NCBI GenBank assembly: GCA_017506865.1
Contig: JAFCMP010000357.1
Coordinates: 927,994-991,993 of the forward strand
Length of the DNA stretch: 64,000 nucleotides
DNA from: Tribonema minus
Lineage: Eukaryota; Sar; Xanthophyceae; Tribonematales; Tribonemataceae
Reading direction: 5' to 3'
Shown: positions 1 to 46,540 of the stretch, one piece after another
Numbering within the stretch: the first letter of the stretch is position 1
Layout of the letters: each line of letters begins with the position of its first letter
The notes under the pieces: model-generated
The model's database searches: none
What the model was told of the DNA's origin: nothing
What the model saw: the letters and a program-made list of their open reading frames with translations, nothing else
Program-made: the position numbers and the translations under genes

Positions 1-926
1 CTTTCGCTGGCTGACACGTGGGTTTAGGGTTAGGGTTAGGCGTCGCGTGCCTCGGCGAGGCGATGGACGTCTTTATGGCCGCCATGCGCGCGTGGGTGTG
101 TATATTATGAAGTGCGGCCCCCTCAATTGCTGCTGGGGCTGACAAGTAATATCGCCACGTTCAACATACGATGCCATGTCAGCGCTGGCTGACATGTATG
201 TATGTGTTAGTACGGCCCCCTCGCTGGCTGACTCATGCGTTTAGGGTTGAGGTTCGGGTGAGGCGCCTCGCCCTTTGGTCTGAGTCTGGGTCTGAGTGCG
301 CACCCCCCCCCCTCTCGCACCCGTGCGCCTTGCCTCGTGCTCTTTCTGCGATGCCTGCCACTCCTATCTGCTGCATGCGCGTATCTGGACGTGATTAACC
401 GCCCACGAAGCCGTCGTCGTGTGGCACAGCGCCGCGCCGGCTCATGGTCCTGCGAAGTGCCAAACCTTAACACTAGCCCTGCCTTGAGGCGGCGTCACCG
501 CGGCTCTTGTCGCATAGCATCCGCCTGTGTATGTTGTGTCAGGCGCTTGTACACGCATACCTCAATGGAAGACGCCCCTAGAGCCCCCCCCCCCTTGCAC
601 CCCTCCCATTAGCGCAATGTGGCAGCGATCAACGACAGATCTGAGCTCCCCCAGCCTTTATTTACGTCCCGAAGTGCGCACTTTAAAGAAAGTACACGCT
701 CCCCCCCACCCTGCGGCATTCCGCGTGCAGGCAGGCGCAGACGCCGCGCTAGCCCCTCAACGCCACCCCCCTGGCGGCCACCGTCGCGTGGGCCTACCCC
801 CCTTTGGCCCCTCGCCTCACAAACCCCCGCATCTCCTCTTTGACGTCGCGAAGCGCGTACTTTATAGTACATTGAAGTGCTTGCCCCCCCCCCTCCCCTC
901 GGCACGCTGCGCACAGGTGGGCGCAG
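1..926. other. Upstream region with repeats, no convincing complete exon
   Basis: This stretch holds a perfect TTAGGG-type tract (23-40). A degenerate copy of the surrounding segment recurs about 200 bases later (from about 184, with a decayed TTAGGG-like part near 240). There is also a decayed copy (about 660-805) of the acceptor and first bases of the exon that starts at 927. Short open frames overlap on both strands but none shows coding character. Earlier exons of the LRR gene could lie here or to the left of the window. Confidence 0.5.
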
Positions 927-985
927 TCGCCGCGGGAGCCCCTCAACGCCGCCCCGCTGGCAGCGATCGTCGCGTCCGCGGGCGC
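658..985 (+). repeat. Tandem copy of a 3' splice site and exon start (LRR gene)
   Basis: The segment before and into the exon at 927, including the acceptor and the stretch agcccctcaacgcc, has an imperfect copy about 186 bases upstream (about 660-805). The copy keeps a GCGCAG acceptor-like site and the C-rich tract, but its frame is not maintained. Confidence 0.7.
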
Positions 986-3900
986 CATCGGCGGCCCCCC
1001 CGTGGCGCAGCAGCTGCTGGCCAAGGCGCTGCGCGCCGCGGCGTTCCGCCACGCGCCGCGCGGCAAGCGCCGCGCGCTGTGGCGCCTGCACCTCGAGGCC
1101 ACGTGCGGCGAAGGTGAGGCGGCGCGTCACGGCGCGTCACAGTTGAAATCATAGTATGTAAAATTGAAGTTGTGGTAGTCTGGCCCTGTGGCGCCTGCAC
1201 CTCGAGGCCACGTGCGGCGTAGGTGAGGCGGCGCCGCGGCACGTCACAGTTCAAGCATGTGTGGTTCAGATTAGAGGATTGAAATGCTGTTGAGCAATGA
1301 TGCGCATAGTGTAGCCTTTGAGTCTGGTATCTGACATGAACGCAACGTCCCTCACCTTACAATTGCAGTCTGGGGCGTGCAGCCCGTCGATTTGCAGCGC
1401 ACGGAGATGTGAAGGGTGTAGTTACAAGTGGAGTTTCGGTGGGCCGCCCCCGATGCGGCGTCGCGTGGAGATCTGACGCGACGTCCCGTTCTGTGCGGCA
1501 GTGGTACTGTGCAGCGGCGCAGTGGGTGCGCGCTGCGTGCTCAGCATGGCATCGTGCGGCGTGCATTCCGCTGCTGCGCGCGCGCCCGAGGCGCGCGCGT
1601 TGACGCTCCGCCGCTGCCGCGTGCGTCACAGACGAACGGTACACTCAGTATTGAAGGCCTATTGTCTGAGGGGTGTATCGGTCCGACATTTATATACATC
1701 GAATCGTTGCCATGCGCAAGAGAAGCCTGCAGCTGAGCGAGGCAGTCGTAGCACGCGCGAGCGGCGGCAACAATTCCCGGCGCTGCGCCGTCGCCGGATT
1801 CTGGCGCGCGAACGGGCCCCCTGAAACGTCGCGACCCGCACCCGCTGCCAACGCCAGGCAATGGACTCTTGCTTCGCTGGTGCTGCGCAGCCCGCATTGC
1901 TTCGTTCGCGGCGATACTGGGCCCATGAGCACTTGCTCTGCCGCCTGTGCAACCTCGTGCACAGCGACACTCCGCCCCTTCAACCGCTCGCCTCCCGGCC
2001 GCCCGAATTCGCCGCTGATCGCTGCTGCTCTGCGCCGTCCGCATCAACGCTCAGGCGAGAAGCTCGCCGCAGCGCGCAGCGTATCGGCGGCAGGCGCCGA
2101 CCCCGCGGCGGCGGCGCGCGCGGTGCTGCTGGAGGCGCTGCGCGAGGAGGCGCACGCCGCCAGCAGCAGGGCGGCAGCAGCGCAGCCCGCTGCTGCTGCC
2201 GCCGCGCCGGCCGCGTGCGCGAGCCTCGGCGACGCGCTGGTGCGCATGCTGGGCGGCAGGGCCGGCGGGGCGGACAGGGTGACGGGTGAGTTAGAGCGCC
2301 GTGTGCGCTCGGTGATGCGTCTGCGGCGGCATGAGGTTTAGACGTCGAAGTGGAGGGGCCCGGATAACGGGAGCGGCGGCGGGTTCTGAGTGTTTCTGGC
2401 TGCTTGTTTGGATTTTGAACTTCGCAGTGACTGCCCTCGCCATGGTTGCCTACATAGCTGTCGGCAGCATGCATCCGACGCTTCTTGACTCTGCCTGGAG
2501 GTACCGCCACGACACTGCCACCATACGGACTGCAGCCGTTAACACACGTTTTTTGTCACCGCGCCTCTCTCATGATTGCATTATGGGCGCGACCGCCGCC
2601 GCGGACCCGGCGCTGATGCTCACGCATGATGGAATGCTGCTGTCCCTGTCTGCCCTCAACAGTTACGACAGTTGAGCGACCGCTTTTCCTCATGTGTGTG
2701 CGCACGCCGTTCCCCCGCTGCACGCCAGAACTGCTGATGGACTCGTTCCTGAGCGCGATGGTGTGGCGCTACGCACAGCACAGGGAGCGCGTCGGCGTCG
2801 CGCCGGCGGACTGGGAAGGTGAGCCCCATTACTCAACGCTGCATCAGCGTCATCGTCGTCATCACAGCAGTTTGAAGCAGTGAAACGTCGCAGAATGTAA
2901 GGTGCGCCCGACCAGTGAGCGAGACAGGGTTCTCACACCCAGAGTGCATCATGAAAACCACGCTGCGCCCGCAGACTGGGAAGGTGAGCCACCTTGCTCA
3001 ATGCTGCATCAGCATCATCGTCGTCATCAACAGCAGTTTAGAGCAGTAAATCGTTGTAGACTGTATTGATGAGTCCAACCATTCATGGATGCAGGGTATC
3101 AGCAGCACCCAGAGTGATCATCACAAGCAGTTCATAGTCTAGCACTCGACCGTTGTGGACAGCCAAGGTGCGCCAAAGCATCAATACAGGGCAGCAGCAC
3201 CCGCTGTTATAAGAGCACACGGAGGCTGACCCGTCAGGATGTGCTCCACTGTGATATACTCGTGCGTGTACGCGCACACTTTGCAGCATCAAGATTTGAT
3301 GTTCGGTTTCTCAAGCATGGTAGGAGAAGTGTGGATCAGGGGGTCGCTGCCCTCGGCGATTGCACAATTGCGGTGCGTTCGTTCGCACGCTGCCCTCGCC
3401 TTTGCGCTCGTAACGCCGACAACCAGCCGCCGTCGCCAGCCACCACGTGACACCGCACCGCCCCAGCTTCAACTTCATTGCCACCGCCAACTTCAACGTC
3501 GCCGCCGCCGCCGCAGTCATGCACGAGCTCTTCGGCACCAAGCAGGAGGTCCTCGTGGCCCCCGCCTCCACGCGCGCGAGGGCGAAGGCGAAAAAACCTT
3601 CCGATGAGTTACCGCCGCTCAGCGGAGCGCGCCGCGTGCAGTGGACGGCGGTCGTGTGCGCGCTCGGCGGCAGCGGCGGCGGCGGCGGCGGCGGCGGCAG
3701 CAGCGCACTGGCGGGCGACACGACGGAGGCGCGCGCGCGGCTGCAGGCGTGCGCGCGGTTGCTCGGCAGCGTGGTGGACCTGGGCGTCAACAAGGCGCTG
3801 CGGGGTGAGCTGCCTAGATCGAGCCTGCTATGAGCAGCCGCACCCCTGTCATCTCAGACACTCAGTACGAATGAGCAGCAAACGACGCGTATTTGCCTCA

Positions 3901-6900
3901 GAACGGCAATGACGACGAGCAGCGCCCCGTGACAGCTGACATTGAGTGTCTGGTAGGCGGAACTAGTTGAGGCGCGGAGCGAGTCAACAAGGCGCTGTGG
4001 GGTGAGCTGCCTGGATTGAGCCTGCTTTGAGCAGCCGCACCCCTGTCAGCTTGGCGGTGCCGTAAATGCCCGAGCAAACGCCCCCCTGGACCCGCGGATC
4101 CGGACCTGTGCTCATTGAGCCTCTTGTGAGCAGCCGCACGCCTGTCATCTTGGTGGTAGGTGCTCGAAACAGGAATGAGGAGAAATCGTTGGCAGGGAAT
4201 GATGAGCATCCGGTAGGTGAGGCTGGGTCGGGTGTGCAGCGAGGCCCCCTGTCGCGGGGCACACGCAGTGAAGCGCACAACCGCACTGCAAGTCGGGACC
4301 GTGCGTGGCTGCGGCCGTGCTGCCGGTTGCACGTCAGCTGCTGGATGCTTTCGGCAGCGGCAAAGCCTGAGTCTACTCGAGGCCAGGGCGTGGCGGGCCG
4401 GCAGGCACGGTCAGGGCAAGCGGCAGCAGCGCTCGGAGGCTGCACGGCCTCAGTGCTCAGCGGCGCGCGCAGGCTTGGCGCGCGCGGATGCAGCGTCACA
4501 CATGCCGTCGCTGGACAGCGCAGCGCATGGCAAGTTGAAGTCGACCGCTGCCACATGCTCAGCAAACGGACATGTTCTCTCCCCATCCACAAATGGTTGG
4601 GAAGCATGAGCTCTTGCACACCATTGAGCACGGCTCTGACCGCCGTCACACCCTCATGTGTTTTTGCTGCTCACGCGGCAGGCACCGGCAGCAGCGGCGG
4701 CGGCGCCAGCGCTCCTTCCGGCAAGAAGAATGGTCCCGCAGCGAAAGCTGCTGGCAACGGTGGCGCTGGAAACGGGGTGAGAGTTTGCAGTCGCGCAGGT
4801 GTTGCCGACCCTGCTCTGGAGCGCGGCACTGGCCACGGGCCACTGCAACTGGAAGTGCGTGGGATGAGGCAGCAGACTCGCTTGGTTGGCATCACGCAGG
4901 CGTTGCGTGTTGCCGAGCGCTGCCCTGTGTGTCGGCAAGAGTCTTGTTGTCTGTAAGGTCACCATGCAGGGTTACTAGTTCCTATTGTTAAGCGCTATCG
5001 ACCTCACTTTGTCCTGTCAGTGGCCCTTGGCTGGGGCCGGCGCTGCCTCACGTTGTGCCCAACCTACCGAAGCTCGAGTATCTGTACCTAGACAACCAGC
5101 CAGGACTCACTAGAGGTGAATTCCGCCGTACCTGCAGAATATCACTGTGCGTGCATGGAAAACTTTTGTGACACCTGCAAGTGGTCGTGTTGTCATCGTG
5201 TCATTGTTTTGTACTGCCCCCCCCCCCCCCCCCCCCCCTCCCCCCACCATGCAGAATCCTGCAGCTGCCGTGCGTCTCGCTTCCTTAATACAGCTCCCAA
5301 TCCGTGCCGCCACCCTGAAAGCTGAAGGTGAGCAAGGGGAAACTCAATTCAATTTGCTTCTAAGCTCACGCTGGGTCAGTGAATGCACCTTCCTGGTCTT
5401 TGCCCCATGCATTGGGCCCTCATTCTTTCCTCTGCAGTGTCACTAGTATTCGCTGGGCAAGTTCACATGTTGTGATGTTATGATGTCCACATCTAAGTGC
5501 CAATTCACAAACGCTTGCGCACTTCAGTCCGCACACGCTTGCTGCATTGTTGAGGGTTGCGGTTTAGGGCTAGGGTTAGGAATTGGTTAGGGTTAGGATC
5601 AGGATTAGGGTTAAAGTTAGGTTGACCCTAAGGCGCCAGCACTCTGAAGGTAGAGGCGGCAACAAGGGCAGACGTGCCTGCTGATCACCGACGCGTACGC
5701 GCCTGCCACATGAGCTTTGCACGCTTGACCGACGTTTGTCGAGCACAAGCTGCTTTCATTGACGGCGAGATGCGCACACACGAGAGCGAGAGCAGACACA
5801 GCTCTGAGCACTGCCACGGCCAGGCGCACACATGACGCCCGCTCTGAGAGCAACCACAGCTCTGAGTCCTTCCACGCTGGACCTTTATATGAAACAATAC
5901 GCAAAGTATCAAACAGTGCCACGAGGGATTTTGGCAGGCGAATGCGCTTTCAGAACGTGGCTCGCAAGCTGTGAGGAGCATGCAACATGCGCAAATGAAA
6001 CAAAACTGCAACATCTTACCACAACATGGAGTTGAGGTCGAAACTGAAGTGCACTCAATGCGGTGATGTTCATTGCTGCTGAAATGTAGAAGATGCGAAA
6101 TATTTGCAGCCCCGCTCAGGACCAGCAGCCATTCTGCAGGGCGCACAGCTCACGACACCTTCTGACGCCCTTCAGTACTTCATCAGCCCCCCTCCCTCAT
6201 TACTCAGTGGGCACTTGCGGCATCCCCATGCACATTCTCCAATCACGCAGCACCCAACTCAGCGCTCAACTGCCATGTGCTGCTGCCGCCGCCACCTACT
6301 GCCAGCCGCATTTGCAGCGCCCGCGCCCTACATTGCCATCGCGCGCCTGCTGGCGTCCATAGAGGACGCGGGCGGCAGCCCCTCGGACGCCGCCACAGCG
6401 CTCTGCGCCGCCGCCGCGCGCCGCCCTCGCTGCGCGCGTCTCTGGGAGCACCTGGTCCTGCTGCAGGCGCGCTGCGCCGCCGGCGGCAGCAGCAGCGCCG
6501 CCGCCGCTGCAGGCAGCGGCCAGGGCGGCGGCGGCGGCGGCGGCGAGAGCGCCACGGCAGTGCGTGTCAAAGGCAAGGGTGCGACCCGCGGCGGTGGCGG
6601 CAGCAGCGCCGCCGCTGCTGCTGCAGGCAGCGGCGGCCAGGGCGGCGGCAGCGGCGGCGAGAGCGCCATGGCAGCTCGTACCAAAGGCAAGGGCGCGGCC
6701 CGCGGCGGCGGCAGCGGCGGCGGCAGCGGCGGCGACGGCGGCGCGGCAGCGGCTGCGGAGGTCGCGGCGGCGGCGTGCGCGCGCGGCGCCGCGCTGCGGC
6801 TGCGGTGCGGCGGCGACGAGGCGGTGCTGGCGCTACCGGCGGCGGCACTGGCTGCGGCGCGGCGCGCGCTGCTGCGCGGCACGGCGACAGCTACTGTGCG

Positions 6901-8047
6901 GCTGGGCGGCGTGCTGGCGGGCTGCGGGAGCGTGCCGACTTCGGTGCTGGTGTGCGTGGAGCGGGCCACGAAGATGGACCTGTCGGGGAATGCGTTGACT
7001 GCGCTGCCGCCGTGGCTGCACCTGTTCAACGTGAGCGACGCTGCTTCGGGTTGGCGCTGCTGGTGCCGATTGTTGTTCACGCATGCGCGTGTACGATGAC
7101 GGTGATGGGCATTGTCCATGTCTCCACCGTCCTCTGGTGGGTGCCTTTCATTTAGTGCTGATGAGCACACACCGGCGCTGCTGAATGCGAACGTGCTCCA
7201 CTGCATACAACAGCTCACGTCAAGGCCTCGCCTCGGAGATGCTGGTGATGGAGGCTTCGTGTCGAGCGTCCACTGCTCGCTCATCTACCATGTGCTTCAA
7301 AAGACCAGGCAATCTTGGTGACAGCCAACTGCTAGGCGCAACCATGCCTCCTTATGCGTAGCCTGTTGCTTCTTGCGGTCACACCCAGGCAGCAGTCCGC
7401 TTGTCCATGGCTGTACCCCATGGACGCAGATTGCACATGGCAGGCACTTGCAAAGCATCCCCGTCTGCTTCTGCCCAGAACCGCATCGTGCATATGGCAC
7501 ACCTTTGGTCCTCCTAGAGTAGATGATCATCGAAGCCGAGAACTGCCGCCAACACACCCCTCGAGCCCCCCCCCCGCCCCCCCGTTCTCCCCTGCCACAG
7601 GAGCTCGAGGCGCTGAACCTGTCCTCCAACCGCCTCGCCGCCATCCCGCTCGACAGCGCGCTGTGGCGCATGCCCCGCCTCCAGCTGCTCGTCCTGGACA
7701 ACAACGCGCTCACAACGCTGCCGCGCGGCATAGGCGCGCACGCGCGCGCGCTGCGGCTGCTGTCGCTGGAGGGCAATGCGCTGAACGCTGTGCCTGAGGC
7801 GATTGCGGAGCTCACGCAGCTGCGCTCGCTCAAGCTCGCGCGCAACCCTATTAGCGCGCTGCCGCCGCGGCTGTTGGATGCGCTGCCAGATCTGGCGGAG
7901 TTGACGGTAGACGTGGAGCCGCAGCGCGACGCCGCAGGCGCAGCCGCTGCCGCTGCGTCGGCTGCAGCCGGTAGTGGTGGTGGCGATGGTGGTGGTGGTG
8001 GTGGTGGTAGTAGTGGTGGTGGTGGTGGTGAGGACATGTTGATCTGA
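927..8047 (+). CDS. Leucine-rich-repeat protein, multi-exon (5' end uncertain)
   Basis: LRR proteins use LxxLxLxxNxL repeats as protein-binding scaffolds; the partner here is unknown. I read exons 927-1113, 2055-2285, 2729-2818, 3517-3804, 4682-about 4854 (uncertain), 5021-5115, 5265-5327, 6318-7030 and 7601-8047. All have GT donors and AG acceptors. Phases agree across the first four exons (each ends one base into a codon, the next supplies two) and again from 5021 to the stop at 8045. LRRs are visible in the 5021 exon (LPKLEYLYLDNQPGL), at the end of the 6318 exon (MDLSGNALTALPPW) and through the 7601 exon (LEALNLSSNRLAAIP, LQLLVLDNNALTTLP, LRLLSLEGNALNAVP, LRSLKLARNPISALP). The N-terminal exons are helical and Ala-rich; the 6318 exon has Gly/Ser-rich spacers. 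No catalytic domain is seen. The first exon has no ATG, so the start lies upstream. The LRR identity is firm; the 4.7-4.9 kb joint is not. Confidence 0.75.
1077..1253 (+). repeat. Tandem copy of an exon end and its 5' splice site
   Basis: The last ~35 bases of the 927-1113 exon, its GTGAG donor and the following intron (to 'cacagtt') recur about 109 bases downstream (about 1186-1253). The copy contains an intact GGTGAG decoy donor. Confidence 0.8.
2809..3085 (+). repeat. Tandem copy of an exon end, donor and intron start
   Basis: The sequence gactgggaaggtgagcc at the end of the 2729-2818 exon, plus about 100 intron bases, recurs with an offset of about 165 at 2974-3085. The copy has an identical donor sequence and a similar intron body. 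Confidence 0.85.
3786..4160 (+). repeat. Two to three tandem copies of an exon end, donor and intron start
   Basis: The stretch gtcaacaaggcgctg..ggtgagctgcct at the end of the 3517-3804 exon recurs about 197 bases later, at 3983. The intron part 'gagcagccgcac.cctgtca' occurs a third time near 4130. The second copy keeps an intact GGTGAG donor. Confidence 0.85.
5552..5630 (+). repeat. Degenerate TTAGGG-like tract in an LRR gene intron
   Basis: Several TTAGGG and near-TTAGGG units lie in the intron 5328-6317. The G-rich strand is the sense strand of the gene. Confidence 0.85.
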
Positions 8048-12631: not shown

Positions 12632-15600
12632 ATGATAGACGCACCAGGATCGGCGGGCGAAAATGAGCGTATTTTAGGGCTTGTGCCGAATGCAGCAGGC
12701 GCTACGCATCAGATTGGCAAGCGGAGGCGGAGGGGGAAAGGCCGCAAAGACAATGAATCGGCTCCTCTGCAGCAAACCGCGCAGCCATCGGCTGCCTGCG
12801 CAGGGCTTTCTCTACTATCGTCCCGTATCGCTGATGATGATGCGGACCCTCATCGTGCAGAGGAGAAAACTTCGGTCCCCCTTCAACCACAGTCGCCATC
12901 AGCTGGACCGTTTCTGCAGCCTGAGGAAAGAGACGAAGGAGAGGTTAATGCCCGTGTGGTCGCAGTGCTTGGTGGCGAAGGTGCGCAGGATAACAGTTGC
13001 GATGCTGAAGCGGCGGGCAGGCAGCAAGTGGGGGGCGGCGCAGGTGCTGTGGCAGCATGCATACCCACTGCTGCTGGAGCTAGCCTCGTTCACGGCGGCA
13101 GCACGACTGGGCATGATGCAAAGGACGTCACGCGTCAGCCCGTCGGCGGTCAGCTTCTGTCTGCAACGCAGCGACCGCCCATTGAAGTTGGTGCCCACCT
13201 TCCACTTGAAACATCAACAGGACTTGAGGGTGACGCCGGCAATGTAACCAGTCTCGGAGGGCCTGCCAATCCCCTTGCAGTGCACGGCAAGGCAACTGCT
13301 CCTGAACTGGAGAGTGCTGGGCCAGCCTGCACCACAAGCGACGATGTTGCGGTCCAAGGCACCACTCTGCAGCTCGCCCCTGCGGGGAGCGGCTGCGCAC
13401 TGAACGAGGACAAAACTGCGGTGGCATTGCTTTTGGCTTCGGCGCAGGCATACTGCGTCGCGCACACAATCTTCAATCAGCCAAGAAGTTCGAGAAGGCG
13501 CAATCATGGCCGACGCTCCTCGAGGCAGCAGGCAGCGGCCGCGGCTACCGTGGTGTCGACGCCGGATGGACAGGCCCCTGCACAGAGCATCGCGGGCGAC
13601 AGCAGCAATCAGCAGATTTTCCTTGCAGCGATGATTTCCGTGGGCAAGGCGGAGTATGCGCACAATACGCTGCTGGCTCAGCAGCGGCAGGGCCAGCCAC
13701 TGACGGCGGCGCAGCTGACCGAGGCTGAACGGGCCGTCGACGCCAGCATTGAGGCGGCCATGCTCGACATGTTCACGTCGCTGAACTCCCGCGCGCCCAT
13801 TCTGGAGCGCCTGTCCCTGCAGTCTGGAGGACAGGGTGCCCATGTATGACCTCCACGGCCTGGAACCGATCTTGGGCATGGTGCAGGTATGAATGTGAAT
13901 TCATGAATGTGAGCACAGTGTGAACGAGTACCACAGCAAATTGCATAGCTTGGAGTGCAACAGTATTTGTGAGGCGTAGCTAGATTGCAGACATCCAGCA
14001 TTTGTACACATCAATATCAACCACATTACATCATGCGTTCAAGTGGCATAATGCTGAAAAACACCACGAGACATATTTGAATGTAAGGAGCCAAGTGGTG
14101 CACAAGCAGGTTTTTTGCCCCTCACGCAAAATTGAATCAAAGTACACAAGGAGACAAGTACAATCATATCACCGGTAGCTGTTCTGATGAGTTCTGCACA
14201 GTGACTCCACAACATCATACCGTTGTTAATAATGGTAACCCATACCCCTTTAAGTACATGCATGAAGTCTGTTGTGGACATTAGTGAAATGCTTCGAACG
14301 GATACACTCACGAGCATTCAGCTACAACTTGCCTACGACACAGTGCTGGAGTTCACTTGCCACATCTTATAAAGCACGGCAACATTGCACTGACCGCATG
14401 ACTGCCCAAAAACAAATACTGTGAAGTACCGCCTAGTGGCACTTGAGCATTTTTGAGCTTACATATCGTGCATGTATAACTTACAGGATAAGTGACCCGC
14501 GTGTTTGCAATGTTGAGCACTGATGCCGCCTTCAACATGCGCAGCACATGCAAGAAAAACGGGTTTGAACTTTGGACGCGTTGAGATGTGCTGGCTGATG
14601 CCGAGCGGACACAACGGACCTGCTCATGGTAGTTGAACTTGTACGTCTCAATCAGCAGGCATGCCAGCAAAGCTGGTGGTGGCTCATGGCAGAATGATGA
14701 TGTCAAGTAGTGCTGGCCCAGGCTAGGGTTCAAGCTAGGTTAGGGCTAGTTTAGGGTTAGGTCCATGGCGCACACTGAGCACTGCTTTCCTCGACATCCC
14801 GCGCGCGCAGATGTTCTTCAAGGCAATCCTCGGCAGCGACCTCGGCGTGTGCGGCTGCGCGCTCCTCATCACGGGGTGGGGCAAGCACACCACCGACGGC
14901 GAGTCCAAGCTCAAGGACAGGGTCATCGAAGACGCCGAGAAGCGCGGCCTCGTCGTCACCCTGTACATGCGCAACGCGGGCGTCGTGGGGGTGTGCACGC
15001 CTCAGCTGGCCGCGATCGTCGCGAGCCTCAGGAGCGAGCTGGGGGATCCGGCGTGCGGGGAGTACACCCCCGCGAATGACGTCGCGCAGTGCCGATTCAC
15101 GCCGCCGTACGCGCGCTGCGCGCACCGCGAGGCCCTCGCTCGCCGCGCGCCCTGCACGCCGCCTCAGGAACTTGCGTACGCACAGCCCCTGCCCGCACCC
15201 CACAGCACGCAAGAGCCCGCTGCGCAGTGCCCCCCCGACCCAGCATACGAGCCGTCAGCGCCTATTTACGGCGCGTCACCTGCACTGTTCACTCCCTACT
15301 TCAACCCCTACTTCAACGCCGCAGGCCAGGCGTTCCCCTGCCAAGCGCCAAGCGCGTGGGCTCCCCACTGGCTCTCACACCCAGAGACCCCATTCACGGG
15401 CCGTGTTGAGAGGGCACATGCCGCCGAGCCGCCAGCGCTTTCGGAGTCTTATCACAGGGCAGCTCAGCACTCTGCACACCCACAGCCCTCATACTTTGGC
15501 GCCGCGCAGAGGCCGTATGCGCCCGCCTGGCAGCCCCCCTCCTGCCCCGATGCGCAGGGAGGGTGGGGTGCATATGGTGCAGGCACGTACCAGGCAGTGG

Positions 15601-17255: not shown

Positions 17256-20200
17256 TCACACGCTCTTGTCGTCGTACAGCGTGCTCGCGATGGACGTCGA
17301 CGCCGCGGCGAGCGCGCCGCACACGCCCGCGGCGACGAATGCGCGTTCCGCGAGGCGCCTGGCGTGCGACATGCCGCCACCGCCACTACCATTACCACTA
17401 CCATTGCCATTGCCACTGCCATTGTTATTGTCGCACAGGCGCAAGTGGAACAGCGGAGGGTAAACGAGCGCGAGAGGCACGGAGCACAGCGCGCCGACGA
17501 GCCCCACGAACGCGTCGAACGCGGCGCCGCCGAGCAGCGCCAGCAGCGCGACGCCGCCGCACACGCCCATGCGCAGCGCGTTCTTGCCCCAGCGGCGGCG
17601 CTGCGTCGGGGGGCGCGCGCTCTCCAGAGGGGTCCAGATCATGGCCTCGAAGATCTTGGTCGCGGGGAAGAGCTGGGGGAGGGATGGGGGGGAAGTGGAT
17701 GGGTGTGAGTGCGCAGCGTAGTTGAGGTTCAATGTATGCGGTTGTAGGGTATGGTCCGCGTGTGAGGAGCGTCCACGCTTGAAGCTAGGACGAGCACGCG
17801 ATAAGAGTACGTGCTGCCAAAGCGCTGGACCTATGAACCGGCCTACTGGTGTAGGTTGCACGTACAGCACATCTGCACATCAGTTGTGGTGTTGAAAGTG
17901 AAGAATTGGCCTCCAGTACAAGACGTGCCGTCTGTGTCGGCAGGCACCCGCGCTGAGCGTACACATTGGTCAAGGCCCTCTCTGAGGGATGCTATCAGAG
18001 CGTTGCCATTTCAAATGACTCATCAGGCGTCACTTCATCACTACTTGCCCCCTGCCCCCCCCGTTCTCTTCTACATGCCCCGCCCCAAACAAGGGGAAGC
18101 GGGGGGGGCTTTTGGGGGGGGAGGCACTATGACCGCAAATAGGTGACTCACCTGCAAGGGGAAGGTGAGCATGATGCCCACGCTGTACAGGATGCGTACC
18201 AGCTTGCCCTCGGTGGAGTGGACCGGCAGCGTCATGGTCACAAACTCGGGCACCTCTGGCCCAAACGCGAGGTACCCCGCCAGTCCTGCAAGCACAAACA
18301 GGCGAGCACAATAAAGCAACAGCATGCACATCAGTGGAAGGTGCAATGATTGGCGCAAGGGCTCATGGGCGTAGCCCTTCTTGCATGCAATCTGGGCAGG
18401 CCCCTCGCATATGCTTTTCAGTTCCAGGTGGGCCATTCTGAACTCATGAAGCGGGCGCCGCGCTGCACAACATGATCACGTCTCCCCCGCTCTGTGCGCG
18501 CGTGCCTGCGCAAATGGATACCCCGACTGTGTACCGTGGGCATCTGCATTCGCGCGCTCCGGAGGGCATGACAGAACGCAGCGGAAGCCTGCCAGGCGCG
18601 CAGAAAGAAGCGCATGGACAACATCCACATCACCCCTGTTGCGCGCTTGGACTGCCGTGACGGCGCGCGCTGCCGCCGCTGCTCTCATGGGCGCGCGCGC
18701 TGAGCAACGCAATCCTCGCCGCGCATGCACACGGCAGCGCTGAGAACCGCGCGCTGCACCGCCGATGCTGTGAGACATGCCCTTCAGGCGCAATGACCCG
18801 TGTTGCCACACCGCATGCCACGAGGCACTGAACTTCAGGGTTGCACTGATAAAGGCTACTTCTTTAGAAACATTTTGTGTTGTCATGGGTATGAGCATCA
18901 CGACACGCACGGCAGCGCCGACACGCAGCAACGACGCCGCGGTATGCGCTCAGCGCTCGCCTGCGCAGCAGCGCACTTGGAGCCGCGCCGCGGCGCATCC
19001 ACCACACTCGATGCCTGCAGCGCGCCCTGTAGTTCTGTACGCGCGCAGCAACGACCAACGCGACGACGGCAGCAAACCAGCGGCCGTGCATCTCGCGAGA
19101 GTGCCACGGCAGTGCCACCGAAGAAGAGCAGGAGAAGGACGCACCGAACAGCAGGAAAAACGTCACGACGCCCGCCGAGCACGCGCACAGCAGCGCGTTG
19201 AAGCGGTGGCGCAGCGCGGGCGCCATGGCGTCCTGGATCGGCAGGATGAGGCCGATGCCCTCGAACGACGCGACCGCGCTGCCGAGGACCATGAGCGTGC
19301 GGCGCGGGTTGAGCATCACCACGCCTTCCGCGGCGCCGTCGACCGCGTACTGCGTGGCGACGTGCCAGAGCGTGAGGGTCAGGCCCACGAGCAGGCCCGC
19401 GTTGGCGAAGAGCATGCCGGCGCCGAGGTACTGGATGCGCCGCACGCACGCGAGGGGCGCGTAGATGGCCAGCTGCCACGGGGTGACAGTTTTTTTGGAG
19501 GGGGGGGTGGGGGGGGGGGGGAGTGAGAGGTTTAAACGGTGGCGTGGAGCCCCTCAACAATGATGTAGCAGGATAGTAATTGAATGGGCGTTGGCGACCA
19601 GCATGCCGGCGCCGAGGTACTGGATGCGCCGCACGCACGCACGCAAGCGGCGCACAGATGGCCAGCTGCCGCGGGGTGACAGTTTTTTTAGGGGGGGGGG
19701 GGGGGGGGGGGGGGGAGGGGGAGAGAGAGTGGGAGGGAGGAGAGAGAGTTTTGAAGAGGTTGTGGAGCCCCTCAGCGATGATGCGGCGGGGGTCATGGAT
19801 CGGATGTGTGTGTGTGTGAGTGAGGTTCAGTGTTGCGGAGCCGTTCAGCAAGGCTTTGCAAGGCGCCGTCGACCGAGAACAACAGCGTGTGCGGAGGCAG
19901 CGTTTTGCAATGAGCTGCACCGCACAAAGGTACACGCACATGCGCGAAGGGCGTCAGATGGCCGCGTGCTGCAGGGAAGATCAAAGGGGGGCGGGGCAGG
20001 GGCGGTTGACTCAGTGCTGCTGCATGGCAGTCAATAGAATCAGGATGCTGCAGGAGTAATTGAAAGTACGCTCACATGTGCAAATAGGGACCGCCACGTG
20101 CGCATGTGCAAGGGACGCAGCGATGGCCAGGCGCCGCAGGCTAGAGCAGGGTTGCACGGGAAAACTGACCCTAACCCTAACATTAACCCTAAAACCAGGG

Positions 20201-20967: not shown

Positions 20968-21008
<41 letters not shown>

Positions 21009-23931
21009 CAGCAATGACTGGCACCATCAGTCCATGAGTTGAAATCGGAGGCGCTGCTTAGGTACTTGAAGGCTTGCCATGGTGACTGCTTCAATTAAGC
21101 GCCATTGTGGAGGTCGCTCGCTTGCGTACCACTTGCAGCCTTGCGCCGGAGGCTGCTTTGGCAAGTGCTGTATATAGTGAGGTCACTGCATGAGCAATGC
21201 GCCAAAGGGCGCACAGTGCACTCAGAGGTGGGATGCACAGCGAGCACGATGGGGTGTGTACGCGTGCAGCAACGGGCTTTCTCGATGTACGATTCTGCAG
21301 GGGCTACGTTTCACAGAGAATGATGACAAAGGCTATGCATCGTGCAACTGGTGTGTCAGTGCACATACATGGCGCATATAACTTTCACCGGCATACTGAC
21401 ATGGTTCCCCCATCGCCCTAGCAATGTGCGCTCGCACCTGCGTGCCTGCGCACCAACCCTAGCCGTTACCGTAAACCTAATCCTAACCTTAAGTGCACTT
21501 GCCTGGCTGAGCACCAGGCTTGTCTCCACGGCCGCCCTGCCCACACGCCCTGCGGCGGCATACCCAATGTCCCCAAAGGAGTGCGCTCCCGTGCTCCTGA
21601 AGAGGAGACACACACACATACACATATGGAGGTACAGATCCAGGCAAGCAACGTCATGAGATAGAGTGTCAGCAGAAGGCAAACGCAGAGATACAACACT
21701 CCTGCCGCGGCGTTGTCGACGTCCTCCGAGGAGTGCGCTGCAGCGCTCCTGAGAAACACACATGCACACTCACACACATGCATGACGCGGTTACGCCATG
21801 TAATGATGAACATATGCCAGCGCACAGCAAAGATTGAGTGCAGTGCACAGCGTGGCTTGAGGGGCAATGCTTCGGGGCACAAGCGTTTGCATGCATGAGT
21901 TGTAGCAATGGCAAGTGAGAGTGGGGGGGACTGAGCACTGCCACCCCCCCCCCCTCTCGGGCGGGCAGAATGCATACAGCAACTTTGACATCAGCCAACA
22001 TTTTTCAGAGGTTGCAGCACCAGTTTGGTGCTCACTTGCGAGGATCACTTTAATCACTTGAACTTGATGTTCAGTGTTCATAGGGGTGCAGTTGCGGTTG
22101 GCCGCCACGCACCTGCACTCTAGCAGCAGCAGCATCGCCAACGTGCTCAGGATGCCTGCGAGGGCCAGTATGACAGAGGACCCCACCGCGCCGCCGAGCG
22201 AGAAGACATGCGGTAGGTATAGAACGTACGTCCCAACCATACCCTTGATGTAGGTGACTGCACGCGCGCAGCGGGATGGCAGAGGGGTTAGGTGGGGGGG
22301 GGGGGACGTGAAGGAGAGCAGTACGCGGTACTTGAGGCATTGATATCATTGAGTCATACCTCACATACGTACTCAATCAAATACATGCACTGATTTGTCT
22401 GCGATGTCACCTTGTGGGTGACAGCACGCGCGCAGGGACGACAGAGGGGTGAGGTGGGGGGGGGGGGGGGCATGAAGGAGAGCAGCGCGCGGTAACTCAG
22501 CACCGGCGTGCAGCGCAGGTGACTGAGAGGCATTGATATCATGAGTCGTACCATACGTACGTACCCGATCATACACATGCATTACTCGTCTGCGATGTCA
22601 CCTTGGTCATAATTCGCATTGGGACAAGGCAAGGCAGAGGGGCGTCGCCGAAGCCTACGCAGAGTCGAAACAGGGCTCTGCGTAACGGTGAGAGTGATTG
22701 GTACATAAAAGTCTCCGAAGCAGAAGTGCGCAGAACGGCACGGCAACAATGAGCGTGTCGCTCACAATGACGGCGAACATCAAGTTGCCACCTTGAATAG
22801 TGACTGAACTCATTCAGCTGCAGAGGGATATTGATACAGATGCACCTGAGACTCGTATAATCGACGAACATTCTCCTTGACGTGGTGCAGCTCATGCGCC
22901 CGGATGCTACGGGGCTCAGTGAAAAAAGCAGCATTCATCATTGGAACAGCTGAATGTGAGTCCGCAACCGCCGCCATCTCCACAAAATACCAAAGCTGTA
23001 AATTCGATTATCGGTTGTCGAAGCGCTGCTGCAGCAGCAGCAGCAGCAGACAACCCACATACGTGCCCTTAAACACACTCCAGCACACAAAAATACAGTG
23101 CGGCCGCGTGCCATCGACTTCAACTTTGTCCAATTGTGACCACAACCAATGCCCGCTGCGCACGCCGCCCCCAACACTCACCGGCGGTGCGGCCCAGGCC
23201 CGAGCCCTTCCTGCCGTGCGCGCTCGCGCTAAGCTCCCCGCCCCCGTGCCCGCTGCGTCCCCCCCCACTCCACACACCCCCCCCATCCAGCAGCGGCAGC
23301 TTCTCCCCCCCCTCCGCAGAGGGGGAGCGCACCAGCGCCACCTCGCGCAGCAGCGGCGGAAACGCCTCGCCGCTCCGCGCGCGCCAGCTGCGGTTGCGGC
23401 GGCGCTGGCGGCGCGGGAAGGCGCCGCCGCCGCTCTCAACTTCATCTGTGACGCTCCCCTCGAACTCGCTGAAGTACTCCACGTCCTCGTCGTCGTCGTC
23501 CGCGAACAGCGAGCCGCCGCCCTTGGCCATGAACTCCTGGGCCTGCCGGGGGGGGTTGGGGGGGTGGGGTGGGGGGGGATATCGAAGTGCTCAGCACTGG
23601 CTTGCACGCGTCAGCGTCGTGGCTGGGGCACGATCAACGAGTGCTCCCAGGCCGTGCGCAGCTGTTTGGTCTGCCACCCTTCAACAGAAACTGCACGAGC
23701 TCAGTGCAAAGGTCGCAGAGATGGCGACAGCATCCACTAGGTGTGACATGCAGGCCTGCGTTTGTTTGCTCTTGCAGGGCAATCAACACCCTGCGACCAC
23801 CTCACATCATGAAATGCGTAAACCCCACGCCTTACTTTATTTCTGTCCCTCGCACCCTCGCTTTGCAATACTTCGCCAGCACGGCCTTGCCTGCTCTCCA
23901 TGTCGGCATTAAAGCTCACCTCGAATGCCAT
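17256..23931 (-). CDS. AAAP-family amino-acid transporter (PAT/SLC36-like)
   Basis: AAAP family members are multi-pass membrane carriers that move amino acids, often with protons. Exons on the complement: 23182-23542, 22113-22257, 21503-21596, 20840-20929, 19145-19472, 18152-18285 and 17256-17672, with every phase matching. From ATG 23530 this gives 518 residues. An upstream piece ending at 23920 (MAFE before a GTGAGC donor) also joins in phase and may hold the true start. The acidic N-terminus (FADDDDEDVEYFSEFEG) is followed by IKGMVGTYVLYLP (first membrane segment), AHSFGDIGYAAAGRVGRAA, LGFCTTYYIFVASNL, ASFEGIGLILPIQDAM, YLAFGPEVPEFVTMTLP, RILYSVGIMLTFPLQ and LFPATKIFEAMI, matching the family in order. 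The C-terminus has a Gly/Asn-rich loop. One donor is GC (exon 21503). Substrate and membrane are not determinable. Confidence 0.9.
19417..19780 (-). repeat. Tandem copy of a 3' splice site and exon start (transporter exon 19145-19472)
   Basis: The start of the exon ending at 19472, its acceptor and the C-rich tract recur upstream in the gene (about 19600-19720). The stretch gtggagcccctca recurs too (about 19546 and 19761). The copied exon frame is close to, but not identical with, the real one. Confidence 0.85.
20168..20194 (-). repeat. TTAGGG-like tract in a transporter intron
   Basis: The + strand shows ccctaaccctaacattaaccctaa, so the TTAGGG strand is the sense strand of the minus-strand transporter gene. 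Confidence 0.85.
20940..21006. repeat. CAG/CTG trinucleotide repeat in a transporter intron
   Basis: A near-continuous run of cag units (with cgg and tag interruptions) lies just upstream of the acceptor of the exon 20840-20929. On the sense strand it is a CTG repeat, serving as a mixed C/T tract. Confidence 0.85.
21452..21490 (-). repeat. Decayed TTAGGG-like tract just inside a transporter intron
   Basis: The + strand has ccctagc, cctaatcctaacc and related units, within about 50 bases of the donor of the exon 21503-21596. TTAGG is on the sense strand. Confidence 0.6.
21535..21780 (-). repeat. Decayed copy of a transporter exon start and acceptor
   Basis: The first half of the exon ending at 21596 (encoding AHSFGDIGYAAAG) has a decayed copy at about 21700-21760 that still reads AHSSEDVDNAAAG on the minus strand. 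The CTCCTGA acceptor region and a CA-rich stretch are copied with it. Confidence 0.8.
22240..22640 (-). repeat. Two further copies of a transporter acceptor region
   Basis: The acceptor region of the exon ending at 22257 (gtaggtgactgcacgcgcgcag..cagaggggt, then a G run on +) recurs near 22410-22500. A shortened copy lies near 22590-22640. The linker containing cattgatatcat is also repeated. Unit length is about 170-180 bases. Confidence 0.85.
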
Positions 23932-37633: not shown

Positions 37634-37668
<35 letters not shown>

Positions 37669-42095: not shown

Positions 42096-45000
42096 GGCAG
42101 CAGCCTACGTCCACGCTCCTTCCGGCTTCGTGCTGCACCAGGAAGCGAGCCGGTGGCGTGCGGCCGGCCATGGGGGGGGGGGCGCGGGGACACCGCCCCC
42201 CCCCCGCCGCGCGCAGCGGCTGCGCGTTGCAGCGGCTGCGCGTTGCGCCGCGTGCGCTTGCTGACGTCGTCCGCGGCGCGTGCGCGGCACGTGCAAGCGC
42301 GCGGCGCACAATGTCTGCGGGCACGGCAGGATGCCTTGCCACCGCCGCAACGTGCCGCTGCAGCACCGTGCTGCGCCGCGCGCACATGCCAGCCGGCCGG
42401 CGCGCGGACCGGAGAGGTGCGCAGAAGCGCACCGCGCCGTCTCGTTTTTTTTTTCGCAACGTCCCACGCGGGCGCACGGGCAGCGCCTCCCCCCCCCCCC
42501 CACACACACAGACATCCCTGTCAGTTGATTATTGGCGGAGCGTTGCCACGGCACGCGATCTACGTGGGCCGCCCACCGCTGAATCTCCAGCCCCCCCCCC
42601 CCCTCCCCCCGCCTAAGTAGCGCGCTGCGCCTGCACTATTGGGGGGGCACAACTGTGAATTGCGTGCTGTTGTGGCGCACAACCCACTGTGATTTTTTCA
42701 TCGGCCAAGCTAGCGCGGTTACCACGGCAACGAGGGTGTGTGCGAGCGAGCGCGCAGTGCGCTCCCACACACTCCCGCCGCATAGACAGTATGCGTGCTT
42801 GTGTGTCGCGTGTTATTCTTCATTCGTCGAAGCCCCCAATGCGCAGCAGCGTCCGGTGCCGCCACGGCGGCAGGCAGCCGCGCGGCGCGCGCGGCGGCGG
42901 CGGCAGCTGCCGCCGTCTTACAGTGGCTCTCGCCCGCGCCATCGCTTCGCCATTTCCTCCCTAGATACCGCTGCAGTGGTTTTCCGCTCCTGCTCGCGCA
43001 CGCGCGCCCGGAGTGTTGTGTTGTTTGGTTCATGAATTCATGAGTCCAGGATGTCCACGGACACATCCCCCGCTGGTACCCCCTATTCACGGGTCCAGAG
43101 GGTGTACCACTTTGAGTTTCCACCCCCCGCACAATCGCCCTGTCAGCCCCCCATCAATGGCCTGCAGAGGCCCTTGCATGTGATAAATGTGAACGATACG
43201 TGTACTCGCAACGCGTGGGGTGCATGTTGTGCTGCCTTGTGGCACAACAAGTGTGCTGGCTGGTGTCTTGTGCATGCAAATGCATGCAGTGTCCGCTTTT
43301 GCGGGGCAGTCGCTGTCCTGTCCTCCGCTCCGAAGTGGCGTGTGAGGAAAGCGGTCGCATGGTGCACGTGCCGCCTGGTGGCCTGCCGCGCACTTTGTTG
43401 CTGCGCGCGCCCAGATCCCACGCAATCATCATGCTGTTGCATACATACTGGTATGTACATATGGGGGGTGGGGCACATGGAGAAGGACGTAGGGGAGGAT
43501 CCCGAGATGCCATTTGGCGGCGGCGGCGTTTGAGTGGTTGTCGTTGAGACACTTTCAGAAGTCACACGACATGCAGATTCCGTACAGCAGCATCAATTTA
43601 AATTTTAGACCATCATCTGGGCTTTTTCGCGCGCTGAGCGAGAATTTTGAATAAAAAAGTACACTGCATGAAAACTGTGAGATGGGATCTGCGTGGAGCT
43701 GGGTGGCCCTTAGAAGGGTCTGTCTGTGGGGGGAGAGTCTTGCAGCTTTGTTTGGTATCCCTGCTAGTGTGTGGGGGACAGTCGCTTGCGGATGCTTTGT
43801 TGGGGGTGATATGGGAGGCCCGGTGAACCACCGTCCCGCTCATCAAGGAGGCGATGCTTTGCTTAGTTATATAGCCTTTCTTTCTAGCGTCAGCGCCTGG
43901 CGCCCAGTGACTCCCTCTGCTTATCTTTATGATATCGGGGTTCACGTAGATAGCCACAAACTCCAGTTCAGGGCCCATTATGGTGACCTTGGCCTGCATG
44001 AAAACTCTGAGATGGAGTCTGCGTGGAGCTGGGTGGCCCTAAGACGGGTCTGTCTGTGGGGGGAGAGTCTTGTAGCTTCGTTTGGTATCCCTGCTAGTAT
44101 GTGGGGGACAGTCGCTTGCGGGTGCTTTGTTGGGGGTGATGTGGGGGGCGGGGTGTGGCGTGCAAGCTTTGCATGCTACATCCAAGAGTGAGAACAAGGC
44201 GACACACCTACAACATGCCATTTCCACAGCCACAAGTGGAATATAATAAAAGTACACGCTTTTTCGCGCCCTGAGCGAGAATTAATAAAAAGTACACACT
44301 ACACCCAAGAGTGAAAACAAGGCGACACACCTACAACATGGCATTTCCACAGCCACAAGTGGAATATAATAAAAGTACACACTACACACCTCGGAAAATT
44401 ATTGTGTCGTGACAGGACAAGACGGAATGAGAGCTCCACTCTATTGCCTGAGCTGTGTGTAGAAACATGACAGTTCTTCTTCCACTCCTGTCATGGGCAA
44501 CGCGTGGAAGTGCCAGTTGCGCACAGCGTCCTGCTCTGTGCAGCAGTGCGCATCTTCTACACCAAAGTGCAAAGCTGTCATCACACTTCCTGAGCACTGA
44601 CCTGCTGAGACTAGAACACACTCTAAGATGCATCCATGGCATGTAACCGCAAATGGCAATGCAGCGCAACTTCAAGCAGAAAGACGAGGTACAGCCAGGC
44701 GCGCCGGTGGGCTCACAACAAGATGCTCCATTTGCATTGTAGGCCCGGCACGAAGAACCACACGGTCATCAACTTGACGCAACGGTAAAGACGTAATGCG
44801 CACGGGGCACGTTGTATGTAGCGGCGGGTAACGACGCGCCGCCGTGCGACATGCAAGGGGGAAGGGGGCGGCACAGCGTGTGTGGCGCTGCTGACACAAT
44901 GCCTACTTCAAGAACTTATCCGACTGACGCGTGTGTGTGTGTGTGTGCTACGTGGCACACTCAACTTCAACCTTCAAAAAGCGTGTGCGACTCTCGTCGC

Positions 45001-45838
45001 CCTCATCCCAAATACCCCCCTCCCCTCCCTCCCGCCCTTTTCCCAAATCACATCAAGTTACCTTGGGGTCATCCTGTGGCGCTTGACTGAAGTGTTGCTA
45101 ACGTCAACCCCCTACGCGTGCCGCATCTGTCATCGCCACTGCCTTCGCGCTGCTGAACAAACGCAACCTCAACTCTCTGCGCGGAACTCATCGCACGCGC
45201 CGCCGCGCTGCCTCCGCGCGGCGCACCCCCATGCGAGCGTCGTGCAGCGCCAGCGCAACAACGACGAGCGCTGCTGCTGCAAATGACCGGAGCACTGCCA
45301 CACTAGTCGCCGCGTCCACGCATGTTGAGGGCCGCCACAGCACACTCGTCTACTGCAGCCGCGCACGGTGGCCCCCCTGCCTTGCTCGTGCGCACGTCGT
45401 GCAGCGCCCGCAGCAGCGGTGCGCGCAGTTCTGCGGCGCAGCACCATGGGGCAGCAACACGAACGCCGCTGCGAGGCTCGCGTGTCGCCGCTTACGCGGA
45501 TGCTTACATCGTGGCGCGCGTGCTGCACGTTGCCGCGCCGCCAGCGCCACCGCCGCCGCCACTGCTGCCGCTGCCTCTGCCGCCGCTGCTGCCACGCCGT
45601 CGCCACTGCACCCGCCGCCACCACCGGCGCCGCCGCTGTCGCCTTTGCCGCAGCCGTCATAGTCACCGCTGCCGCGACGCCGACGCCGCAGCCACCGCAA
45701 TGCGCCGCACCGCCTCCGCACCGCCGCCGCCGCCACCGCTGCCGCGACGTCGCCGCTGCTGCACCGCACCGCACCGCCTCAGCACCGCCACGGCACCGCC
45801 GCCGCCGCCGCCGCCGCCGCCATGAGGCGCCGCGCCAC
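42096..45838. other. Region after the Myb gene, including a repeat block, no supported gene
   Basis: Outside the composite repeat (43617-44390), open frames overlap on both strands without domain signal. Between 45380 and 45830 GCC/CAC-type repeats open Ala-, Arg- and His-rich frames on several strands. Further 3' exons of the EF-hand gene (-) could lie at 44.8-45.8 kb. Confidence 0.4.
43617..44390. repeat. AT-richer composite repeat with nested direct copies
   Basis: A unit of about 165 bases (gcatgaaaact..gagatgg, then gcgtggagctgggtggccct, to gggggtgat) occurs at about 43665-43825 and again at 43996-44145 with only scattered mismatches. A second unit (aagagtga.aacaaggcgac to aataaaagtacac) occurs at about 44184-44257 and 44307-44381. 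A third (ctttttcgcgc.ctgagcgag) occurs at 43621 and 44257. Composition is clearly more AT-rich than the surroundings. A frame of 169 codons (43682-44191, +) stays open through both copies of the first unit, and an overlapping frame is open on the minus strand. This looks like an insertion or decayed mobile element; no transposase or reverse transcriptase is recognisable. Confidence 0.7.
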
Positions 45839-46227
45839 TCACGCCTTGCCGCCGTAGAGGCGCGTGCCCATCTCGTACAGCGCCCACAGCAGCGCGCCCA
45901 CGGCGCCGTCCTCGCTCGCAACGAACGCCGCGAGCTCCGGCGCCGACAGGCGGTCGTCGCCGTCCGCGTCGAAGCGCACCATGGCGGCGCTCGCGGCGGC
46001 GTCCACGAGCCCGCGCAGCGCCTTGGAGGTCGGCGCCGCGTACGGCGCCGCCGCCGCCGCTGCCGCTTTCTGCGGCGCCGCTGCCTCCGTGGCGGGGTCG
46101 CTGCCGTTGAAGAGGTGCGGCGTGCGCGGGGCGTTCGCCGCGACGAGGTCGAGCTGGAGGTCGCGCAGGCCGCGGCGGTCGACGTGCGTGGAGCGCCGCC
46201 CCTCCGCGCCGTACATGGTCATGATCA
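45839..46227 (-). CDS. EF-hand-containing exon, 3' part of a calcium-binding protein
   Basis: The exon begins after a CGCCCAG acceptor (exon end at 46227) and reads IMTMYGAEGRRSTHVDRRGL, then LRGLVDAAASAAMVRFDADG and DDRLSAPELAAFVASEDGAV. The loop DADGDDRLSAPE keeps Asp at 1, 3 and 5 and Glu at 12, but has Asp instead of the usual Gly at 6. The exon needs one base from a preceding exon, so it cannot join directly to the MGNS exon upstream (which ends in phase 0); at least one exon in between is missing from this model. The TGA at 45839-45841 overlaps a good GTGAGT donor, so the protein may continue into further exons. Confidence 0.6.
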
Positions 46228-46540
46228 CTGGGCGCGGGGGATAGGGTGTGTGGGGGGGCGTGATATGAGTGTGTCAGGCGGCAGCGGCGGGGTGTCGTAC
46301 GGGTGGGAGGGTGTGTGTGTGTGGGGGGGGGGTGATATGAGTATGTCAGGTGGCAGCGGCGGGGTGTCGCATGGGGGGGAGGGGGGGGGGGGTCACGTGC
46401 GTGGAGCGTCGCCCCTCGGCGCTTTCTATGGTCGGCGCTGTGGGGCGGGGGGGGGGGGGGTCATGTGAGTGGCAGGTGAGTCATGAGGTGACGGCGGAGG
46501 GGTGTCGTGCATGGTCATGATTGCTGGGCGTGGGGGGGAA
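46178..46540 (-). repeat. Copies of the EF-hand exon start and acceptor
   Basis: The stretch gtgcgtggagcg.cgcccctc.gcgc..tatggtc and the following G-rich tract (its acceptor on the minus strand) recur at about 46397-46460. The part catggtcatgat..ctgggcg recurs again at about 46509-46530. In between, a unit containing gtgatatgagt.tgtcagg.ggcagcggcggggtgtcg recurs at about 46260, 46330 and, in part, 46480. Confidence 0.8.

What the first reader, a model, noticed from the sequence alone, without database searches (positions are those of the whole stretch)
658..46540. Introns of four genes carry tandem copies of their own exon-intron junctions
About nine introns contain an imperfect local copy of the exon end plus donor, or of the acceptor plus exon start, offset by about 90-220 bases. 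Both strands, both junction types and unrelated genes (LRR, AAAP transporter, Myb, EF-hand) are affected. Many copies keep intact decoy splice sites. Exon bodies are not copied whole. This suggests a genome-wide process, such as slippage or repair-linked duplication at the G/C runs beside junctions, or selection for decoy splice sites. It relates to the idea of intron change by tandem duplication of splice-site sequence but is not the simple AGGT model.
Basis: partly seen in the sequence, partly recalled or inferred. Interest (0 to 1): 0.9.

Follow-up and report, generated by a model that had tools for sequence, protein, structure and literature searches.

The report
Tandem copies of splice junctions
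Many introns of this yellow-green alga hold decaying extra copies of the end of their own neighbouring exon and its splice site, most likely left by ordinary local DNA duplication that does little harm there; the same oddity has been described as "mirages" in a marine animal, the lancelet.

Summary
The window is the end of a 992-kb contig of Tribonema minus. Three of the four named genes (LRR, AAAP, weak EF-hand) have imperfect copies of their own junctions inside adjacent introns; the Myb case is no better than chance. In 293 kb, 31 of 240 trusted junctions (25 of 120 introns) carry 48 such copies, against 0 when introns are reversed or swapped between genes; 37 of the 48 lie in three genes. 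Two cullin genes with homology-supported exons have many. The copies drift like junk: splice dinucleotides are intact in 38 of 48, as general identity predicts; stops and indels accumulate. Copy edges are not tied to G/C runs. Best reading: recurrent local tandem duplication; copies spanning a junction survive because the outer splice site still works. This matches the "mirage" minisatellites of amphioxus (PMC3087553, passages). Junction-spanning arrays exceed uniform placement, 31 of 47 against 15.3, but only 12 of 34 against 9.0 when exons are masked. A known kind, in a lineage and at a scale I saw reported nowhere in my searches.

The parts
39..257 (+). One donor-type copy (39-103) and intron-part copies (to 257) of an array whose functional exon end lies upstream of the window (about -177; another donor-type copy near -82..-30)
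   Evidence: HSPs -229/-82/39/194; copies at offsets 147 and 268 of intron -176..916, GT intact in both
661..789 (+). Acceptor-type copy (intron end + exon start), LRR gene intron -176..916, AG intact
   Evidence: score 88 vs null maximum 33
840..975 (+). Functional acceptor region it copies (exon starts at 917; 59 exon bases copied)
1074..1147 (+). Functional donor region of the LRR gene (exon ends at 1113; 40 exon bases copied)
1183..1254 (+). Donor-type copy, offset 109, GT intact
   Evidence: score 111 vs 25
2800..2960 (+). Functional donor region (exon ends at 2818), first unit of an almost contiguous 165-bp tandem pair
2965..3129 (+). Donor-type copy, second tandem unit, GT intact
3786..3854 (+). 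Functional donor region (exon ends at 3804; 19 exon bases copied)
3983..4051 (+). Donor-type copy, offset 197, GT intact
   Evidence: score 113 vs 33
4114..4157 (+). Third, partial copy of the same array (intron part only)
19399..19529 (-). Functional acceptor region of the AAAP transporter gene (exon edge 19472; 74 exon bases copied)
   Evidence: PF01490
19588..19723 (-). Acceptor-type copy, AG intact
   Evidence: score 190 vs 36
22249..22414 (-). Functional acceptor region of the AAAP gene (about 9 exon bases), first unit of a 164-bp tandem pair
22413..22605 (-). Acceptor-type copy, AG lost (TG)
   Evidence: score 83 vs 26
46174..46377 (-). Functional acceptor region of the EF-hand-like gene (exon edge about 46227) with an internal 71-bp tandem repeat
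46388..46588 (-). Diverged acceptor-type copy (66.5% identity)
43664..44383 (.). Local duplications that touch no predicted junction (43664-43825/43994-44155; 44176-44260/44299-44383), predicted intergenic: the same kind of event elsewhere

Best explanation
The genome of Tribonema minus keeps acquiring local direct duplications with units of about 60-290 bp (median about 140), probably by error-prone repair of staggered breaks or by slippage, then growth of arrays by unequal exchange. A duplication inside an exon is usually harmful. One that spans an exon-intron junction is nearly neutral if splicing uses the outer copy: the protein is unchanged and the extra exon end plus splice site becomes intron. 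Those copies then decay neutrally inside the intron. Exon-containing copies stay recognisable longer because their partner in the exon is held constant. The structures are mirage-type minisatellites. Shown: the copies, their distribution in the sample, their neutral-like drift. Inferred: the repair origin, use of the outer sites, and near-neutrality at birth.
For: 48 copies at 31 of 240 trusted junctions, none in two nulls. Both junction types, both strands, several contigs. Same kind of duplication inside introns and between genes; duplication coverage within introns is roughly flat with distance from the junction (0.12-0.18). Dinucleotides intact 38 of 48, about 35 expected by my arithmetic from flank identity. 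N 132, S 133, 6 stop gains, 9 of 47 with indels; an N/S of about 1.3 is my own estimate for a neutral copy against an exon that also changes silently. Exon parts of neighbouring copies are less alike (0.81) than exon and nearest copy (0.88), as expected if copies drift freely. In cullin the outer sites reproduce the deposited protein at 12 of 13 introns, and the same exons align to Chrysoparadoxa and Ascophyllum. Precedent: amphioxus mirages, reported not to disturb splicing (PMC3087553, PMC3902484, passages); break-induced tandem duplications in mouse and human cells (PMC8355091, passages).
Against: Spanning arrays exceed a uniform model (31 of 47 vs 15.3). Allowing a two-fold longer lifetime leaves 21.7 expected, P 0.002; also limiting the overhang to 84 bases leaves 17.2, P 1.1e-5. 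Arrays with at least 88% identity: 11 of 13 vs 5.2, or 7.0 (P 4e-4, 0.012) (all). Exon overhangs are shorter than uniform breakpoints predict (6-84 bases; KS P 1e-7), although four dropped arrays showed 195-224 and the C18 cullin about 107. Intergenic coverage is lower than intronic (0.05, or 0.03 without 81-bp arrays, vs about 0.14). In one cullin intron two copies share 93% of the exon part but no detectable intron part. Copies cluster: 19 of 48 in one cullin gene, 8 in the LRR gene, 10 in L019. 109 of 120 trusted introns are ab initio.
Confidence: 0.74

Rival explanations
1. A duplication process aimed at junctions: transcription or splicing (bound spliceosome, R-loops, chromatin at exon edges) causes breaks near exon ends, so duplications start about 20-100 bases inside the exon.
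For: Excess of spanning arrays (31 of 47 vs 15.3) and of young ones (11 of 13 vs 5.2), and narrow exon overhang; introns richer than intergenic DNA.
Against: With exons masked the excess is 12 of 34 vs 9.0, P 0.15, though that test is conservative; coverage is flat across introns; 16 of 51 arrays are interior and some duplications are intergenic.
Confidence: 0.15
2. Selection keeps the copies as decoy splice sites or alternative mini-exons.
For: Many copies keep GT or AG (38 of 48; in the C18 cullin five acceptor copies keep AG and five donor copies a site I read as GT); N/S 0.99 is below my estimate of about 1.3.
Against: Intact sites match the neutral expectation (about 35 of 48); stops, indels and amino-acid changes accumulate; neighbouring copies are less alike than exon and nearest copy.
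Confidence: 0.06
3. Slippage at G/C homopolymers beside junctions.
For: Poly-C tracts lie before several acceptors (seen in the sequence, not counted).
Against: Copy edges avoid G/C runs: 1 of 48 within 25 bases, 5.2 expected.
Confidence: 0.03
4. Assembly artefact.
For: One assembly only; no raw reads.
Against: Exon parts of copies differ from the exon by about 13%, some with indels, and are locus-specific; two cullin genes on different contigs show it independently.
Confidence: 0.02

Closest known systems
Mirage minisatellites of amphioxus (Adh3, globin BflGb6/BflGb9, troponin C, PGBD5; PMC3087553 and PMC3902484, passages read)
   Same: Tandem duplications spanning intron-exon boundaries, at 5' and 3' ends, units reported from 10 to 160 bp, several copies, many but not all with AG/GT; reported not to disturb splicing
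   Different: Here in a stramenopile alga and at 31 of 240 sampled junctions; exon parts about 87% identical; units often longer; splicing and copy-number instability untested
[quoted passage not shown] potato RdRp case, PMC4974935; review PMC3443670; passages read)
   Same: Local tandem duplication near splice signals; in potato the duplicated segment is intron end + exon start
   Different: No new intron is seen here; copies lie inside existing introns and contain existing intron sequence
Introners / introner-like elements (PMC9860276, PMC4457414; abstract starts in a search listing only)
   Same: Repeated sequence tied to introns
   Different: Copies are private to each junction; one randomly drawn foreign intron per trusted intron gave no match
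Break-repair tandem duplications (CST / Pol alpha-primase fill-in, PMC8355091; passages read)
   Same: Makes small tandem duplications at staggered breaks
   Different: Shown in mouse and human cells; only a candidate origin here

Membership tests
Mirage minisatellites | Tandem repeat whose unit spans an exon-intron boundary | tested here: met
   31 of 240 junctions, 0 in two nulls; 165-bp and 164-bp tandem pairs in the window; C18 cullin with 5 junction-reaching acceptor copies and 5 donor copies. In several other pairs the aligned part is shorter than the offset
Mirage minisatellites | Both 5' and 3' boundaries affected | tested here: met
   31 donor-type and 17 acceptor-type copies
Mirage minisatellites | Many but not all copies keep AG/GT | tested here: met
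   23 of 31 GT, 15 of 17 AG
Mirage minisatellites | Unit length in the reported range (10-160 bp) | tested here: inconclusive
   Median 140 in the 47 kept arrays, but range 58-286 and upper quartile 175
Mirage minisatellites | Regular splicing undisturbed | not testable with these tools
   No RNA-seq; the conserved cullin protein implies use of the outer sites
Mirage minisatellites | Copy-number instability and homogenised central units | tested here: inconclusive
   One assembly; nearest copy not consistently closer to the exon (per-copy identities, compared by eye)
AGGT tandem-duplication intron gain | Exonic AGGT segment duplicated, intron equals one unit | tested here: not met
   Units contain existing intron sequence; extra copies sit inside existing introns
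Introners | The same element in introns of many genes | tested here: not met
   0 matches of junction probes in randomly drawn introns of other regions

The most novel reading that the evidence does not exclude
Exon edges are hotspots of a splicing- or transcription-coupled duplication process that repeatedly copies the last or first 20-100 exon bases with the splice site into the intron, and is a main route by which introns grow in this alga.
Probability: 0.15. Interest if true: 0.8.

Novelty: new member of a known kind. Interest (0 to 1): 0.5.

Why it matters
The mirage reports I saw are all from lancelets. Finding such arrays at about an eighth of sampled junctions in a yellow-green alga suggests a general mutational by-product rather than a lineage oddity. 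It gives a natural library of duplicated, decaying splice sites on which splice-site choice, intron growth and the tandem-duplication route to new introns can be tested. It also warns that gene predictors may mistake the copies for exons. None of nine searches of the open library listed such arrays in Tribonema or another stramenopile; I judged by titles and abstract starts, and most papers listed were not opened.

Tried and rejected
G/C-run slippage: 1 of 48 copy edges near runs of 7 or more, 5.2 expected. Telomere-like repeats at copy edges: 3 of 48 vs 2.8. Microhomology beyond copy edges: none evident, identity 0.19-0.40 from the second base on. Selection on decoys. The reading that duplications are only a junction phenomenon: coverage flat across introns. 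First gene-finder runs failed through a traceback bug or drifted to tiny exons; only the model was used. A first decoy scan masked true copies and was replaced. still used wrong edges for one cullin intron, set right. In one search some printed alignments are a sequence with itself because the views overlap; those rows are not used. Four of 51 arrays were dropped (overhang of 150 or more, or intron under 200 bases) because the exon model there seems to include a copy; this is my judgement, and if they are real the short-overhang result weakens. Introns under 120 bases are counted in the 120 but were not scanned. L015 was left out of the intron set because it looks like dense intronless ORFs. 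Two of 13 cullin introns were left out for unclear edges.
Full report
Where the window lies. The window is G000:C357:927994-991993 of a 158-Mb, 554-contig genome. A cullin encoded just upstream is in public databases as "Cullin [Tribonema minus]" from a contig of 991,993 bases, the length of C357, so the species is the yellow-green alga Tribonema minus. The named best hits of a BMT5-like protein of the window are brown algae and relatives.

Sample. I held C357:800001-991993 (window included) and pieces of C1, C10, C50, C100, C200 and C500, 293,032 usable bases of 303,032; one 10-kb piece (L020) reads N. No RNA data were at hand, so I trained a gene finder on the sequence (39 genes, 200 introns). 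I kept 120 trusted introns: 11 of 13 cullin introns, with edges set by the deposited protein and by homology to Chrysoparadoxa and Ascophyllum, and 109 ab initio introns with well-scoring exons on both sides.

Are the copies real? In the window, copies at LRR junctions 917, 1113, 2818 and 3804 and AAAP junctions 19472 and 22257 score far above 200 shuffles; the EF-hand case rests on a weaker self-alignment; the Myb case is at the null maximum; BMT5-like and Sec24-like genes give no convincing copies. LRR, AAAP and Myb domains are confirmed by Pfam; the window's EF-hand matches stay below the curated cut-off. Over the trusted introns, 48 copies occur at 31 of 240 junctions and 25 of 120 introns, 31 donor-type and 17 acceptor-type; reversed introns, and for each intron one drawn from elsewhere, give none. 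They cluster: 19 in the C357 cullin (9 of its 22 junctions), 8 in the LRR gene and 10 in L019 (counted). The matching pipeline finds 177 local matches in the real sequence and 0 in each of three simulations.

Two cullin genes make it plain. In the C357 cullin, exon ends such as FLFAYIADK, HTGYMEWLE and TAFTSKRSRIKI recur as decayed copies in the next intron, and exon starts such as SETELSRHLYPL recur before the exon. A Pfam search of the genome found cullin matches on three other contigs. In the gene on C18 one exon start has five upstream copies that reach the junction, all with AG, plus a sixth partial one. The same exon's end has five downstream copies; the scan placed that junction one base late and its site column reads TG in all five, which I read as an intact GTG. 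Of the fetched loci of the cullins on C77 and C528, those on C77 also hold many local duplications and those on C528 none or one; their junctions were not analysed.

What the copies do with time. Splice dinucleotides are intact in 38 of 48, about 35 expected from 0.87 and 0.85 identity of the flanks. Exon parts of 47 copies show 132 nonsynonymous and 133 synonymous differences; changes in the copy alone would give a ratio of 2.43, and with silent change in the exon too I estimate about 1.3; there are 6 stop gains and 9 copies with indels. Neighbouring copies are less alike (0.81) than exon and nearest copy (0.88). This is neutral-like decay. One case does not fit easily: two cullin copies 93% alike in the exon part show no similarity in the intron part.

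Is the junction special? Duplication coverage within introns is about flat with distance from the junction (0.12-0.18) and falls to 0.05 at 75-100 bases into the exon; further out it rises again to 0.14, where the bins run into neighbouring introns. Between genes it is 0.05, or 0.03 without arrays of 81-bp period. Treating overlapping matches as arrays, 51 arrays touch trusted introns and 35 span a junction. After four were dropped as probably misannotated, 31 of 47 span against 15.3 expected for uniform placement (P 2.8e-7), or 21.7 if spanning arrays live twice as long (P 0.002), or 17.2 if the overhang is also limited to 84 bases (P 1.1e-5). For introns up to 1200 bases 24 of 33 span against 13.3 or 18.4 (P 8e-5, 0.028); for arrays of at least 88% identity 11 of 13 against 5.2 or 7.0 (P 4e-4, 0.012). 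When exons are hidden before detection, 12 of 34 touch a junction against 9.0 (P 0.15) (all). That last test is conservative, because it also hides young copies that are mostly exon. I conclude that survival and longer visibility explain much of the pattern, and that a true excess remains possible. Exon overhangs are 6-84 bases in the scan, shorter than uniform breakpoints predict (KS P 1e-7), about 107 in the C18 cullin, and 195-224 in the four dropped arrays. Copies with long exon parts may be purged as pseudo-exons, or be annotated as exons and so escape my set.

Mechanism. Copy edges avoid G/C runs (1 of 48 against 5.2) and show neither telomere-like repeats beyond chance nor evident microhomology. 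Small tandem duplications are a known outcome of repair at breaks with staggered ends (PMC8355091, passages); that this happens here is inference. A junction-spanning duplication leaves an intact exon if the outer site is used, so it is one of the few exon-touching duplications that selection would ignore.

Known kind. [quoted passage not shown] PMC3902484 (one passage) adds troponin C and PGBD5. PMC4974935 (passages) describes a potato duplication of intron end plus exon start that did make a new intron. PMC3443670, PMC2891723 and PMC2812944 were read in passages. The Tribonema arrays meet three testable features of mirages; unit length is only partly in the reported range; effect on splicing and copy-number instability could not be settled. 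Hence: a new member of a known kind, in a distant lineage and at a scale that I saw reported nowhere in my searches.

Noticed in passing
C357 upstream of the window, about -18722 to -19076 in window coordinates: The deposited Tribonema minus cullin (P0035) lacks a conserved stretch (CFTFTDDEERASRMLEEM...) present in Chrysoparadoxa and carries a glycine-rich stretch instead, beside a junction with copies; the gene model may have been misled.
   Followed up: partly
L028 (C18:397680-397934 with flanks): A second cullin gene with five junction-reaching upstream copies of an exon start (plus one partial) and five downstream copies of the exon end; an open frame of 1311 codons runs through part of the array.
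   Followed up: yes
window 5571-5630, 14730-14762, 20170-20195, 21455-21490: Short, partly degenerate telomere-like (TTAGGG / CCCTAA) tracts in non-coding DNA; not enriched at copy edges.
   Followed up: partly
C357 at -83819 to -83072, -80535 to -79826 and -73584 to -72716 in window coordinates: Arrays with an 81-bp period (27 codons) in predicted intergenic or intron DNA, perhaps unrecognised coding repeats.
   Followed up: no
L015 (C1:10001-20000): Dense, almost intronless predicted ORFs on both strands, unlike the rest: possibly a contaminant or other replicon.
   Followed up: no
window 6474-6919: In-frame imperfect 114-bp repeat inside an Ala/Gly-rich coding exon of the LRR gene.
   Followed up: no
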